From Chloroflexota bacterium (GTDB lineage: Bacteria > Chloroflexota > Anaerolineae > Aggregatilineales > Phototrophicaceae), in NCBI GenBank assembly GCA_026707745.1, contig JAPOWG010000041.1:1-64000 (forward strand): a stretch of 64,000 nucleotides of DNA, written 5' to 3'. Below the pieces are notes generated by a model, which saw nothing but the letters and a program-made list of their open reading frames with translations, did no database searches and was not told the origin of the DNA. The position numbers were made by a program, and so were the translations under genes. Of the stretch, positions 25,226 to 30,025 are shown piece by piece. How positions within the stretch are numbered: position 1 is the first letter of the stretch; each line of letters opens with the position of its first letter.

Positions 25226-26683
25226 TTATATACCCAATCGCTCGAATTGCTCGGCCGGGGCGTCGCTGGCGCGCATGAGGTCAGCCAGCTTCTCGACCAT
25301 ACGAGCCTCAACGGCGGCGTCTTGAATCGGGCTTAACTGTCCGGGATCGCTTTCGAGATCATAGAGCATGGTCTCGAACACTGGTACCGCCCAGGGACTG
25401 CGATGGGTGCCGATCTTCATGGTCGGGCAATCCTTGGTGAACGTAAAAGGCGCCCGCAACTCGATCTCTTGCAGTTCCTCGACCTTGAAGCGATGGCGCA
25501 TATGCGTCGGCATCAGCGTGTAATTGTAAAGCGGCAAATTGTCTTCATTCGCCGCCCCGCGCATGTAGACATAAGTCCCGTCATTCACATTCACGTGCCC
25601 GCCGTGTATGCCGTACAAGACAGCCTCGCGAATGGCTGTGTCCTTCGCGACAGTCTCGCCCAGGGGCAGTCCCTGCATATCCGGAGGCCGATCGACGCCG
25701 AAGTATTCAAGAAGCGTCGCGGGCAGGTCAATCGTCTGGACCAGGCTGCTGCGGCGCTCGTTCCTGACGCCGGCGCGCGGATCCCAGATGAAGAGCGGGA
25801 TATTCGCCAGTTCGTTGTACCAGGGCATGCGCATCTTGCCCCACCAATCGTGTTCGCTGAGCAAAAAGCCATGATCCGTGTTGACGATCAGCATGGTATC
25901 GTCCCATAGTTCCAGTTCGTCCATCAGATCGAGCACTAGCCCCAAATAATGATCGCACATGCTCATCAAAGCCGCGTATTCGCAGCGCATGTGATGGACG
26001 GCTTCCGGCGACTGATGCACGCGAGTATAAGGTGGCCAATCGAAAAGCGGACCGTCGTATTCGTGGGGATAAAGCGCTTTCCAGCGCTCTTGCGTGAAAA
26101 AGGGCTCGTGGGGATCGAAGGTCTCGATCTGCAAGTACCAGTTGTCGGCATCGGCGTTTGCCCGGATAAACTCGCTTCCCAGCGCGAAGGTCTGCGCCTG
26201 TGGCATAGCTGATTCTTCGGTGATATAGCCGCGGTTGACAAGGTCTTGTCGCACGTTAACCGGCCGTTGGTCTGGCCTAGTCTCCAACCATGGCGCATCG
26301 ACATCGCCTTTCCACAGGTCGCCTTCTTGCCCGCGCACCAGTTCATAAGTGGAAAAACGATTGTGATAGGTCGCGCCGCCATCTTCCCAATAGTGGTAAT
26401 GATCGGTGACCAGATGGGAATGGATGCCTTCTTCATTCAGGATCTGCGGCATGGAATCGTCGAAGGGCTCCAACGGTCCCCAACTGCGATGGAGGAAGTT
26501 GTAGCGCCCGGTGTGCAGTTCCCGCCGCGCCGGCATACAGGGCATGCTGCCGATAAAGGCGTTGTCGAAGGTCGCGCTCCGCTCGGACAGACGCTGGAAA
26601 TTGGGCGTATGCACCCAGTCACCGCCATAGGGCTGCAGCATGTGGCGGTTAAGCGAATCGAACATCACCATGATTGCTTTCAT
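25226..26683 (-). CDS. Sulfatase (formylglycine-dependent, alkaline phosphatase fold)
   Basis: 485 residues starting MKAIMVMFDSLN at 26683; ten more codons upstream lack a ribosome site. The sulfatase signature is Cys49-Met-Pro-Ala-Arg, whose cysteine must be oxidised to formylglycine by a separate enzyme. The first metal site begins at FDSLNRH (Asp9) and the second is NTDHGFLLSEHDWWGK. There is no signal peptide, so it would act in the cytoplasm. It could remove sulfate from imported glycans, fitting the carbohydrate-rich surroundings. Phosphonate monoester hydrolases have the same fold and cannot be excluded. Confidence 0.87.
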   Translation of the reverse strand: MKAIMVMFDSLNRHMLQPYGGDWVHTPNFQRLSERSATFDNAFIGSMPCMPARRELHTGRYNFLHRSWGPLEPFDDSMPQILNEEGIHSHLVTDHYHYWEDGGATYHNRFSTYELVRGQEGDLWKGDVDAPWLETRPDQRPVNVRQDLVNRGYITEESAMPQAQTFALGSEFIRANADADNWYLQIETFDPHEPFFTQERWKALYPHEYDGPLFDWPPYTRVHQSPEAVHHMRCEYAALMSMCDHYLGLVLDLMDELELWDDTMLIVNTDHGFLLSEHDWWGKMRMPWYNELANIPLFIWDPRAGVRNERRSSLVQTIDLPATLLEYFGVDRPPDMQGLPLGETVAKDTAIREAVLYGIHGGHVNVNDGTYVYMRGAANEDNLPLYNYTLMPTHMRHRFKVEELQEIELRAPFTFTKDCPTMKIGTHRSPWAVPVFETMLYDLESDPGQLSPIQDAAVEARMVEKLADLMRASDAPAEQFERLGI

Positions 26684-26878
26684 ATTCCGAGCAACTCCCG
26701 TTAAGCTTGACAAGACCGTATCATAGCGAAATTCATCGGTGGCGGCAACATAGTCGGAGGTCAGAGGAAATCGCTCTCATTCGATTCCCCTACGCAGGCG
26801 CAGCAACGATTTGCCTATTCAACGAGAACTTCAGTAGAATGAACGAGCAAAGGCGGCTGTCAATTGGCGGAGGCAAAG

Positions 26879-29800
26879 ATGCGACTATCACTGATAGCAA
26901 GTTTGATCGCGCTTTTGATGACAATACACGCATCACATTCGCAGAGCGATTATCCGCGCTGTTCGACCAAGTATCTGCAGGCGGTACTTGCAACTGTACC
27001 CGCTTATGAGGCCTTGCGTTCGACGGCGAGCAGCATCAACAGCCTGGAGGACGCCCTGGATTATGCCGAAGAGCAACTGAGTTACCGTTCTGCGATCTGG
27101 AATACAGCGCCACGCTGTGCGGAGTCCATAGATTTCTTCTGGCAGACGACGCGAGAAGCGGGTTACATCGCCGCGTATTGGGCAATGCACTATGGCATTC
27201 GAGAGTCCTCAAGGGGCAATCCCGACTTCAGGGAAGCCTTGAATCCCTTTATCGATCCGCTTGACGACCCCTTTTACCCGGAGAAGTACAGTCAAACGGT
27301 CAGCGACTTACGCGACCTACTACACGATGACAGTCGAGAAGAGGCGTCGACTGTGGAGGGCGTATCGTTGCCAGCTTGTTCGGAGCCGCAACTCGCGGGC
27401 CTCGCTCCTATGCTGCCGGAATACCAAGGGATCATTGCCGACTCAAAGGCGATCGCGTCAATAGATGACCTGCTGGATTTGGCTCATCGCCAATATGCCT
27501 GGCGCGAGAACTGGGCGCACGAAAGGCGACTTGATGTAGAGAACATGCAAGTCGCGCATACGCAACGCGATGGAATCGCTGATCTGCCGCCCTGTCGCGA
27601 AGCTGTCGAACTGCTATGGCTAATGTACCGAGCCGTCAACGATGTCGTAACCGGAACCGCGCTTATCTACGCTGGCTTTGCCGAGGACAAGCATCCTTAT
27701 TTCAAGGTATTCAATCGCAATGCCGACCGCGTCGACGAGCTGGCCAGGTTGATCGAGAACAGCGAGGCGGATCCTTCCGCGCCCCTCGAAGACTGGCCTA
27801 TCTGTACAGAAAAGCAACGGATTGATCCTAAGAACAGCCTGCCGGCATTCGAAGCCTTTGCCGAAGCTTTGTCGACGGCTCAATACGCTGAAGACCTTAT
27901 GACAATCGGCAAAGCAGAAATCGCCTGGCGGCAAAGCCTTTGGTCCTACGAGCCGGCTTGCGTCAAAGACATAGAAGAAATCCTGAGGCTAAGCCAAGCT
28001 GCAAGCAACATCGTCGCTTCGGTGTCATTCACAACCATAGGCGTGCCTGAAGAGGCCAACCCCTATATGGAAGAGGTGGCCTTCAGTTCGATTCACCTCG
28101 ATACGTTCCCGCTGGTGTTCAGAACGCGTTCAATAGTCGAGGAATCGCCGTTGTATCTGCAAAGTTGTTCGGATGCCGACTTTGACGCCTTGTCGAGAGT
28201 AGTGGCGCAATACCAGGTATTGGACGAGCGGATGTTCGGATTCGGCGGCATGGAACGCTTGCTGCCATTGCTCGATTATATGATTGAGTGGCGCGACAAT
28301 CTGCTAGTCAATTTGCCCGACTGTAACCTGGCATTTGAGATGGGCCTGCAAATGAGCCACATCGTGGATGACTACGCCGCGTTCATCGGGCTGGTCTATG
28401 CGGAAGCGCCGGACGATTCTATCCCTTACCTGAAGACATTTGCCGGGAACAGACTAGACTTCCACGAGAGATTTCGGGGAGGCGCAATAGACCTTGAAGC
28501 GGGTCCGCCACTTTGGCGTTATGGCGGGCAGCTTCCAGCTTGTAGCAAAGAAGAGACTTCTACCGTGTCCGCCGTACTCGGCGAATATCAGGCGCTGATC
28601 GAATCGGCGCGGCGCATTCGCGAATTGGATGACCTGCTCGACTTTGGCGCGGCGCAAGTTGAATGGCGAGAAGGCAGTTGGCGGAACTTGCCCGCCTGTG
28701 CGGAGGCCCTGGAACTCGGCTTGCTCTTGTATGGCAGCGCCGATGATTATTTTTCGCTATACGCCTTTCAAGTTCGGCAAGACTCTCTCAGCGAAACTAT
28801 CAGTGGCGGGCACAGCCTCAAAAGACGCTTGGACGAAATCTTCGCCGAGATCCCCGGCGCGGAACCGGAGCATCGGTCTTATCCGAATACAGATGGCTTG
28901 CCTCGATGCTCTGATGCGGAAACAGATCGTATTCAGGGAATAATCAGCGAGTTCCAAGCCATGCTGGAACTGGCGTCAAGTTATACCAGGTGGGGCGGTT
29001 TCAAGGAGTATATCGACAGCAGGATCGAGTTACGCGAAAAGGTCAAAGCCGACATGCCTGATTGCTTGATCGGGCTGGACCTGACACTGACGATCGCCCA
29101 GAATGTCGCGAGTTCCCTGGTTCAGCTGGTGCCCGGCGTCGGCTCAGCCGACATGGCGAATACCGTTCTGCAAGAACAATTGACCGCGCGCATCGCCAAA
29201 CTCGGGGAGGAAAGCAGCGCGGAGCATGACGCGGGTCCCTATCACAACAATTTTCCGGCGTGTTCAGAGTATCAGCTTACCGAGCTCGTCAAAAACAGCG
29301 CTCTTGACCCGGCCAAGCTGCGAGAGACGATCATTGGAATCGGCAGGGCTGAGGCTTCGTTCTGGCATATAGACAAAGAATTTGCCAAGTATGAAGATGT
29401 CTTGTCGGAGCTGCCGCGCTGTGCGGAAGCCCTGCAGATCGCGATGCTATTTCGGCAGATTCTCGGCGACGGTATTGCCTCGACAGCCCTGGAGCGGGCC
29501 GGCGCTGACGCGATCGCTGACCTGTATCCATCGCGGCAAGCAGATTTGGACGCCCTGCAAAGCCGATTCGATGACATAGCGGATGCCATTGCCCGCCGCG
29601 GACAAAGCGAAGTCCCTTCGTCACAAGAGGTCGGCCTGCCTCGCTGCACAAATGAAGAGCTGGCGACGCTTCTAGCGCTGATAAAGGAGTATCAAGTCGT
29701 AGTCCGTCTGGGAATCAACAGCGAATCGACTGACGAGTTGCTGCCCTATATCAAACCGCATCAAGAATGGCGAGCGGATTTCTGGGCGCGTTTGCCGGGA

Positions 29801-30025
29801 TGTACCGAAGCCTTCGAGGCGGGCTTGCCAACTACGCGAGCCTCGAACAATTTCGTGGCTTATGACAGCTTCGAACTCATTGGATATCCCATGCAGAGAA
29901 GTGAGTTTGGCAGGCAGATCGCCATCGATAGTTTCTTCATGTTCAATTGGCTCAACTTATTGGATAGAGCTGACCGAGACGCTATTGACGCCTTTATGAA
30001 GGCGCCGTTCAAGGAGGGAATATAG
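26879..30025 (+). CDS. Secreted protein of eight two-cysteine helical repeats, unknown function
   Basis: 1048 residues from ATG 26879 (GGAGG 6 bases upstream; the TTG at 26864 is less likely). Signal peptide at residues 1-22, then eight degenerate repeats of 118-142 residues. Each opens with a LP-x-C-S-like motif, continues with L..EYQ.L and DDLL....Q..WR, and closes its first half with LP-x-C-x-EA. The cysteines are at 28/80, 167/239, 309/361, 430/482, 555/607, 677/729, 795/848 and 923/975. All 16 are used. The spacing is 52 in six repeats, 53 in one, and 72 in repeat 2, which has a 20-residue insert. Predicted mostly helical, with one disulfide per repeat and a variable second half. No known domain is recognised. 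No anchor is seen, so it is probably released. It is divergent from the sulfatase gene. Confidence 0.85.
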   Translation: MRLSLIASLIALLMTIHASHSQSDYPRCSTKYLQAVLATVPAYEALRSTASSINSLEDALDYAEEQLSYRSAIWNTAPRCAESIDFFWQTTREAGYIAAYWAMHYGIRESSRGNPDFREALNPFIDPLDDPFYPEKYSQTVSDLRDLLHDDSREEASTVEGVSLPACSEPQLAGLAPMLPEYQGIIADSKAIASIDDLLDLAHRQYAWRENWAHERRLDVENMQVAHTQRDGIADLPPCREAVELLWLMYRAVNDVVTGTALIYAGFAEDKHPYFKVFNRNADRVDELARLIENSEADPSAPLEDWPICTEKQRIDPKNSLPAFEAFAEALSTAQYAEDLMTIGKAEIAWRQSLWSYEPACVKDIEEILRLSQAASNIVASVSFTTIGVPEEANPYMEEVAFSSIHLDTFPLVFRTRSIVEESPLYLQSCSDADFDALSRVVAQYQVLDERMFGFGGMERLLPLLDYMIEWRDNLLVNLPDCNLAFEMGLQMSHIVDDYAAFIGLVYAEAPDDSIPYLKTFAGNRLDFHERFRGGAIDLEAGPPLWRYGGQLPACSKEETSTVSAVLGEYQALIESARRIRELDDLLDFGAAQVEWREGSWRNLPACAEALELGLLLYGSADDYFSLYAFQVRQDSLSETISGGHSLKRRLDEIFAEIPGAEPEHRSYPNTDGLPRCSDAETDRIQGIISEFQAMLELASSYTRWGGFKEYIDSRIELREKVKADMPDCLIGLDLTLTIAQNVASSLVQLVPGVGSADMANTVLQEQLTARIAKLGEESSAEHDAGPYHNNFPACSEYQLTELVKNSALDPAKLRETIIGIGRAEASFWHIDKEFAKYEDVLSELPRCAEALQIAMLFRQILGDGIASTALERAGADAIADLYPSRQADLDALQSRFDDIADAIARRGQSEVPSSQEVGLPRCTNEELATLLALIKEYQVVVRLGINSESTDELLPYIKPHQEWRADFWARLPGCTEAFEAGLPTTRASNNFVAYDSFELIGYPMQRSEFGRQIAIDSFFMFNWLNLLDRADRDAIDAFMKAPFKEGI

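What the first reader, a model, noticed from the sequence alone, without database searches (positions are those of the whole stretch)
26879..30025. Secreted protein built of eight repeats, each with one fixed-spacing cysteine pair
All 16 cysteines pair off, 52 residues apart in six repeats (53 in repeat 7, 72 in repeat 2, which has a 20-residue insert). Each pair sits inside a repeating pattern: LP-x-C-S, EYQ, DDLL, Q-x-x-WR, LP-x-C-x-EA. The second half of each unit is variable. I know of no named domain with this pattern. Regular helical repeats with a disulfide each and a signal peptide suggest a surface or released binding scaffold, perhaps a multi-domain adhesin or receptor, as inference.
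Basis: partly seen in the sequence, partly recalled or inferred. Interest (0 to 1): 0.85.

Follow-up and report, generated by a model that had tools for sequence, protein, structure and literature searches.

The report
Secreted cysteine-pair helical repeat family
The gene encodes a secreted protein made of eight helix bundles, each probably pinned by one disulfide bond; it belongs to a large, undescribed and fast-evolving protein family found in one group of Chloroflexota bacteria that includes sponge symbionts, and it probably acts as an outward-facing binding scaffold.

Summary
ORF 26879-30025(+), 1048 aa, has a signal peptide and 16 cysteines in eight pairs (spacings 52, 72, 52, 52, 52, 52, 53, 52). 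Pfam, NCBIfam, PADLOC, PHROGs and PDB sequence searches find nothing. AlphaFold2 on units 3-4 with 144 natural unit pairs (pLDDT 87, pTM 0.87) gives one four-helix bundle per unit, with the cysteines just before helices 1 and 3. The protein belongs to a large unnamed family: 99 intact secreted proteins (412 units) read here, members in 31 of 34 genomes of its genus, plus a few one- or two-unit relatives elsewhere in its family; none in a sample of the rest of the phylum. Intact members hold only 2, 4, 6 or 8 units. Odd and even units differ, and gain or loss goes by pairs, so the module is probably a bundle pair and this protein is four of them. Many relatives end in an SH3b domain. Its dN/dS is two to three times that of its flanks, and paralogues exchange segments. 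Best reading: a diversifying, extracellular, disulfide-stapled binding scaffold. Two named relatives are Chloroflexota MAGs, at least one probably from a sponge. Ligand and function are inferred, not shown.

The parts
26879..30025 (+). Whole gene, 1048 aa plus stop, eight-unit secreted repeat protein
   Evidence: ORF and translation; orthologues at 93, 91, 70, 34 and 31% identity
26879..26944 (+). Signal peptide MRLSLIASLIALLMTIHASHSQ (22 aa, cleavage site inferred)
   Evidence: Hydrophobic core at the N-terminus; 99 of 99 intact family members have such a segment upstream of unit 1
26945..27355 (+). Unit 1 (module A, odd), Cys28-Cys80
   Evidence: Profile hit in every iteration; helical in the full model
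27356..27778 (+). Unit 2 (module A, even), Cys167-Cys239
27518..27571 (+). Insert of about 20 residues inside unit 2, low-confidence beta hairpin, present in all 8-unit orthologues
   Evidence: Spacing of 72 in six units, one per 8-unit protein; strands 216-219 and 224-227
27779..28141 (+). Unit 3 (module B, odd), Cys309-Cys361
   Evidence: AlphaFold2 four-helix bundle, pLDDT mostly above 90
28142..28516 (+). Unit 4 (module B, even), Cys430-Cys482
   Evidence: AlphaFold2 four-helix bundle, pLDDT mostly above 90
28517..28882 (+). Unit 5 (module C, odd), Cys555-Cys607, the unit closest to other family units
28883..29233 (+). Unit 6 (module C, even), Cys677-Cys729, divergent, with a VPGVGS or IPVLGA motif
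   Evidence: Weakest profile scores and low pLDDT; motif kept in orthologues
29234..29620 (+). Unit 7 (module D, odd), Cys795-Cys848, spacing 53
29621..30022 (+). Unit 8 (module D, even), Cys923-Cys975; ends without SH3b domain or membrane anchor

Best explanation
Shown by sequence and prediction: the gene makes a Sec-secreted protein of eight homologous units of about 122 aa, best read as four two-unit modules; each unit is a predicted four-helix bundle with one invariant cysteine pair. Inferred: each pair forms an intra-unit disulfide joining the N-terminal ends of helices 1 and 3, made outside the cytoplasm by the VKOR-type oxidase that the genome encodes. This gives a sturdy string of rigid bundles on flexible linkers. 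Inferred: relatives with a C-terminal SH3b domain are held at the cell wall, while this longest form, which has no recognised anchor, is released or loosely attached. Inferred: the family is an extracellular, multivalent binding scaffold that contacts host-matrix or neighbouring-cell ligands. Its surface diversifies by tandem gene duplication, gene conversion, module gain and loss in pairs, and relaxed or diversifying substitution, while the cysteines and core stay fixed.
For: Architecture: 16 of 16 cysteines paired. In 99 intact relatives, 813 of 830 repeat-region cysteines sit at the two pair positions. AlphaFold2 of units 3-4: pLDDT 87.2, pTM 0.87, eight helices, Cys8/Cys60 and Cys129/Cys181 just before helices 1 and 3 of each bundle. 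Full length: the same helix pattern along the chain, pTM 0.41, so inter-module geometry is undetermined. Modules: intact members have only 2, 4, 6 or 8 units (12, 73, 8 and 6); in held-out families odd/even assignment is 74% correct against a null mean of 50%, none of 60 nulls reaching it, and 66% for internal units only, 9 of 300 nulls reaching it. Four 2-unit genes equal units 3-4 of 4-unit paralogues at 71-87% identity. Export and anchoring: signal segment in all 99 intact members; SH3_3 (PF08239) on all 2-unit and many 4-unit members; VKOR PF07884 in the genome, E 2e-21. Diversification: tandem arrays; same-locus protein identity 70% while flanks are 85-94%, and 31-34% while flanks are 65-83%; dN/dS 0.29-0.36 against 0.10-0.21; SH3b segment converted between paralogues, 96.5% against 63%.
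Against: No ligand, localisation or expression evidence. Overall dN/dS is well below 1, so fast evolution may be mere relaxed constraint. The S-S distance was not measured. The internal-only odd/even test is modest. Flanking genes are metabolic and give no hint of host interaction. The sponge link rests on the name of one relative's MAG. Three genus members lack the family, so it is not essential.
Confidence: 0.5

Rival explanations
1. A structural protein of the cell envelope or extracellular matrix: the bundles are spacers that self-associate into a coat or sheath, with SH3b forms as wall anchors and the 6- and 8-unit forms as long fibres.
For: Beads-on-a-string architecture, length variation in fixed steps, wall-type SH3b domain on part of the family, one widespread 4-unit plus SH3b member with conserved neighbouring genes in about 19-23 genomes.
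Against: Only one or a few genes in many genomes and none in three of the genus; strong sequence divergence and paralogue exchange are unusual for a self-assembling lattice.
Confidence: 0.2
2. A secreted inhibitor or effector family: each bundle pair blocks a host or competitor protein such as a digestive protease or lysozyme, or a phagocytosis signal, and paralogue diversity tracks the targets.
For: Secreted, probably cysteine-stapled, near genus-specific, tandemly amplified and fast-evolving, a common profile of inhibitor and effector families (general knowledge).
Against: No match to any inhibitor family: PMEI and LprI appear only as one-member chance-level hits, E 0.06-0.08, among 144 scanned; long multi-module forms are not typical of inhibitors.
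Confidence: 0.2
3. A nutrient-capture scaffold that holds sulfated polysaccharide for the neighbouring sulfatase and transporters.
For: A sulfatase gene (PF00884) lies immediately beside the gene in the window and its three closest relatives, and beside the 6-unit member in G466; arylsulfatases are enriched in sponge-associated Anaerolineae and Caldilineae (PMC6306507).
Against: The sulfatase was not seen beside the divergent orthologues in G467 and G463, though those contigs end near the gene; paralogues sit in other neighbourhoods; no carbohydrate-binding module is recognised.
Confidence: 0.08

Closest known systems
Helicobacter cysteine-rich proteins (HcpB, HcpC; Sel1-like repeats)
   Same: Secreted helical repeat proteins stabilised by one disulfide per repeat, paralogous family in a host-associated bacterium (structure and disulfides: PMC3851747)
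   Different: Hcp repeats are short two-helix Sel1 units whose disulfides tie neighbouring repeats into a superhelix; here the unit is a predicted four-helix bundle of about 122 aa with cysteines 52 apart, and no Sel1 model matches
Vinculin, alpha-catenin and talin four-helix bundle proteins
   Same: Chains of four-helix bundles; best structural matches at Z about 8 over single bundles, and vinculin near the top of the full-length search
   Different: Eukaryotic and cytoplasmic, no such cysteine pair, no sequence match; Z 8 is in the range that unrelated helical bundles give, and Foldseek E-values exceed 0.1
Eukaryote-like repeat proteins of sponge symbionts (ankyrin, TPR, LRR, HEAT, WD40)
   Same: Repeat proteins enriched in sponge symbionts and postulated to mediate host contact; repeat scaffold logic (PMC8163846, PMC6306507)
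   Different: None of those Pfam repeats is present; cysteine-paired bundles with a signal peptide; confined to one bacterial family in our searches
Bacterial SH3b wall-binding proteins (SH3_3, PF08239)
   Same: C-terminal domain of 2-unit and many 4-unit relatives
   Different: Absent from this protein and from all 6- and 8-unit members; the repeat part is unrelated

Membership tests
Unnamed cysteine-pair four-helix bundle family described here | Two invariant cysteines, mostly 47-56 residues apart (72 with the insert), usually each preceded by LPx | tested here: met
   409 of 423 units have both aligned cysteines; the rest are mostly truncated alignments or broken genes; all eight window units comply
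Unnamed cysteine-pair four-helix bundle family described here | Four-helix bundle per unit | tested here: met
   AlphaFold2 on units 3-4, pLDDT 87, pTM 0.87; full length shows the same pattern, weakest in unit 6
Unnamed cysteine-pair four-helix bundle family described here | The cysteine pair forms an intra-unit disulfide | not testable with these tools
   Model coordinates are not returned; both cysteines precede helices 1 and 3; VKOR present
Unnamed cysteine-pair four-helix bundle family described here | Even unit number (2, 4, 6, 8) within the genus | tested here: met
   99 of 99 intact genus proteins; single units occur only in broken genes or in distant relatives outside the genus
Sel1-like repeat / Hcp family | Sel1 repeat sequence (PF08238), short two-helix units | tested here: not met
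   No Pfam hit on the protein and Sel1 not among hits of 144 family modules shown; unit is about 122 aa with four helices
Sel1-like repeat / Hcp family | Secreted with a disulfide per repeat | tested here: inconclusive
   Signal peptide and one cysteine pair per unit; bond itself not tested
Eukaryote-like repeat proteins (ANK, TPR, LRR, HEAT, WD40) | Recognisable repeat of one of these families | tested here: not met
   No Pfam hit on the protein at E up to 10; none among the family-wide hits shown
Vinculin / talin / catenin bundle proteins | Specific fold or sequence relationship beyond a generic four-helix bundle | tested here: inconclusive
   Z about 8 for single bundles, Foldseek E above 0.1, no sequence match
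SH3b wall-anchored proteins | SH3b domain | tested here: not met
   Window protein has none; relatives have PF08239

The most novel reading that the evidence does not exclude
An undescribed protein domain (disulfide-stapled four-helix bundle used in obligate pairs) has been amplified in one genus of Chloroflexota, at least partly sponge-associated, into a recombining, antigen-like surface repertoire that mediates host recognition, a lineage-specific counterpart of the eukaryote-like repeat proteins of other sponge symbionts.
Probability: 0.25. Interest if true: 0.75.

Novelty: new variant of a known kind. Interest (0 to 1): 0.52.

Why it matters
It defines a protein domain absent from Pfam and NCBIfam that accounts for up to about a dozen secreted genes per genome in this genus. 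Its features (export, cysteine staple, paired modules, gene conversion, fast change) make it a concrete, testable candidate for how uncultured Chloroflexota contact a host or neighbours. If the bundles are as stable as the architecture suggests, they would also be a natural modular binding scaffold of interest to protein engineers.

Tried and rejected
Known domains: Pfam, NCBIfam, PADLOC and PHROGs give no family on the whole protein; 144 family modules give only scattered weak hits in one or two members each. PDB by sequence: none; the profile's hits to designed TIM barrels and Vps45 cover 26-36 residues of helix and look compositional. Fold searches: nothing significant; second-look Z about 8 is generic for helical bundles. 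Phage or plasmid origin: no match in viral contigs, phages or plasmids. Hits outside the family in the phylum sample with the wider profile were rejected on reading the translations: G310 and G159 resemble the glutamine amidotransferase PdxT, G374 a membrane transporter, others are fragments. Gene neighbours as a functional clue: the widespread 4-unit member lies among apparently metabolic genes; nothing informative. Unit 6 as a membrane-inserting hairpin: its hydrophobic stretch peaks at 1.37 (Kyte-Doolittle, 19 residues), no higher than other units. Odd and even units as two cleanly separate sequence classes: pairwise identities hardly differ, though profiles do.

Full report
Observation. 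The ORF at 26879-30025(+) encodes 1048 aa. The 16 cysteines fall into eight pairs with spacings 52, 72, 52, 52, 52, 52, 53, 52. Random placement of 16 cysteines never gave more than four equal spacings in 20,000 trials. Over 423 family units the second half carries as much information as the first, and helices 1 and 4 are the variable parts.

No known family. Pfam, NCBIfam, PADLOC, PHROGs and the PDB sequences give no match to the protein. Scanning 144 family modules one by one against Pfam gives only isolated weak hits.

A large family in one genus. In the window's own genome there are eight further intact genes on contig C21: two near 18-22 kb, and six in tandem at 81-91 kb running up to the contig end. 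A blast-level search of 98 genomes of the same taxonomic family found it in 31 of 34 genomes of the genus and in none of the other 64. A profile from 144 modules found the same 31 plus two weak hits outside. Reading these and later hits gave five distant relatives in four other genera of the family: single-unit secreted proteins (L148, L150), a two-unit protein (L164), a single unit with LysM and LTD domains (L149) and a single unit with an SH3b domain (L152; domains). L148 and L149 were found before they were added to any profile (E 2e-7 and 3e-4); the others came from a profile that contained those two. Samples of 400 genomes across the phylum gave no convincing hit outside the family; those searches scored only about the top dozen candidates of each genome, so rare or very divergent members could be missed.

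Anatomy of the family. The fetched contigs, which yielded intact members from 29 genomes, hold 99 intact proteins with 412 units, all with a hydrophobic signal segment. In the repeat regions 813 of 830 cysteines are at the two pair positions. The consensus runs LPxC(S/T)..E(Y/F)..DDLL..WR..W..LPxC(A)EAxExG..Q..GD..A..AL..AG..NPY. Unit number is 2, 4, 6 or 8 (12, 73, 8 and 6 proteins). All 2-unit proteins and many 4-unit ones end in an SH3b domain; 6- and 8-unit ones never do.

The module is probably a pair. Assignment of units to odd or even position in held-out families is 74% correct (null mean 50%, maximum 67% of 60). For internal units only, which removes end effects, it is 66% (9 of 300 nulls reach it). 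Four 2-unit genes match units 3 and 4 of 4-unit paralogues at 71-87% identity, a clean loss or gain of one module. At the window gene's own locus, G466 has six units where five relatives and the window have eight; which pair is missing is less clear. An even number in every intact protein is partly shared descent, so the count alone is weaker evidence than it looks.

Structure. AlphaFold2 of window units 3-4 with 144 natural pairs has pLDDT 87.2 and pTM 0.87. Helices are 16-31, 36-55, 61-85, 94-114 and 131-153, 157-177, 182-206, 215-235. Cysteines 8/60 and 129/181 stand just before helices 1 and 3 of each bundle; in an up-down-up-down bundle these are at the same end, which suits a bond, but the distance was not measured. 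The full-length model (pLDDT 76, pTM 0.41) shows the same pattern along the chain, a weak unit 6 and a low-confidence beta hairpin for the unit-2 insert. PDB searches give no specific relative; matches to catenin, talin and vinculin bundles are at the level expected for generic helical bundles.

Evolution. The gene sits next to a sulfatase in the window and its three closest relatives, and next to BtrH-like, MFS and PfkB genes also in more distant ones. Against G489 it is 70% identical while flanks are 85-94%; against G467 and G463 it is 31-34% while flanks are 65-83%. dN/dS is 0.29-0.36 against 0.10-0.21 for flanks. Between the window and G487, dS in the gene is 0.11 while flanks are 0.24-0.61, and nucleotide identity steps up at the gene's edges, which suggests recent whole-gene exchange. 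In G468 the SH3b end of one paralogue is 96.5% identical to another paralogue of the array and 63% to its own orthologue, a gene conversion. The genome has a VKOR homologue for disulfide formation.

Ecology. Named records of the two closest relatives are Chloroflexota MAGs, CO36386bin_4 and COS1_bin_19; contig lengths identify them as G468 and G487. The COS1 prefix fits the Coscinoderma matthewsi sponge samples of Robbins et al. (PMC8163846); that link by name is my inference. The host of the other genus members is unknown to me.

Interpretation. Shown: export signal, cysteine pairing, predicted bundle fold, multigene family, even unit number, fast evolution and recombination. Inferred: disulfide bonding, wall attachment through SH3b in relatives, and a role as diversifying extracellular binding scaffold. 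Structural coat protein and secreted inhibitor or effector are live rivals. The nearest analogue in logic is the Hcp family of Helicobacter (PMC3851747), but membership fails on repeat type.

Noticed in passing
L065:9405-11303 and L065:5599-7488 (genome G468): The SH3b-encoding last 200 bases of one paralogue are 96.5% identical to another paralogue of the array but 63% to its own orthologue, a clear gene conversion; other blocks along the orthologues alternate between about 0.80 and 0.97 identity, a mosaic pattern.
   Followed up: partly
window:26500-30000 against L060: Nucleotide identity to G487 is mostly 0.94-0.97 over the repeat gene but mostly 0.84-0.92 on either side, with dS 0.11 against 0.24-0.61, suggesting recent whole-gene exchange between species.
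   Followed up: partly
window:27779-28141: Unit 3 has dN/dS of about 1.0 to 1.6 against two close relatives although the rest of the gene is more constrained; dS is small so this is only a hint of diversifying selection.
   Followed up: no
L149:1501-1851 and downstream (genome G432): Distant relative with a single cysteine-pair unit followed by LysM and lamin-tail domains.
   Followed up: no
L087:9749-12139 (genome G485): A six-unit member appears split by a stop into two frames, a decaying copy or sequence error.
   Followed up: no
L060:5670-8692 and L066:10897-14032: The sulfatase beside the repeat gene is present as two tandem copies (about 79% and 90-93% identical to the window's) in two relatives, but only one such gene was seen in the window at 25226-26713.
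   Followed up: no
window:36400-38055: FG-GAP / ASPIC-UnbV repeat protein, another possible surface or secreted repeat protein.
   Followed up: no
L027:12349-14463 (contig C21 end) and L065: The tandem array of paralogues reaches or nears contig ends, so gene counts per genome are minimum values.
   Followed up: no
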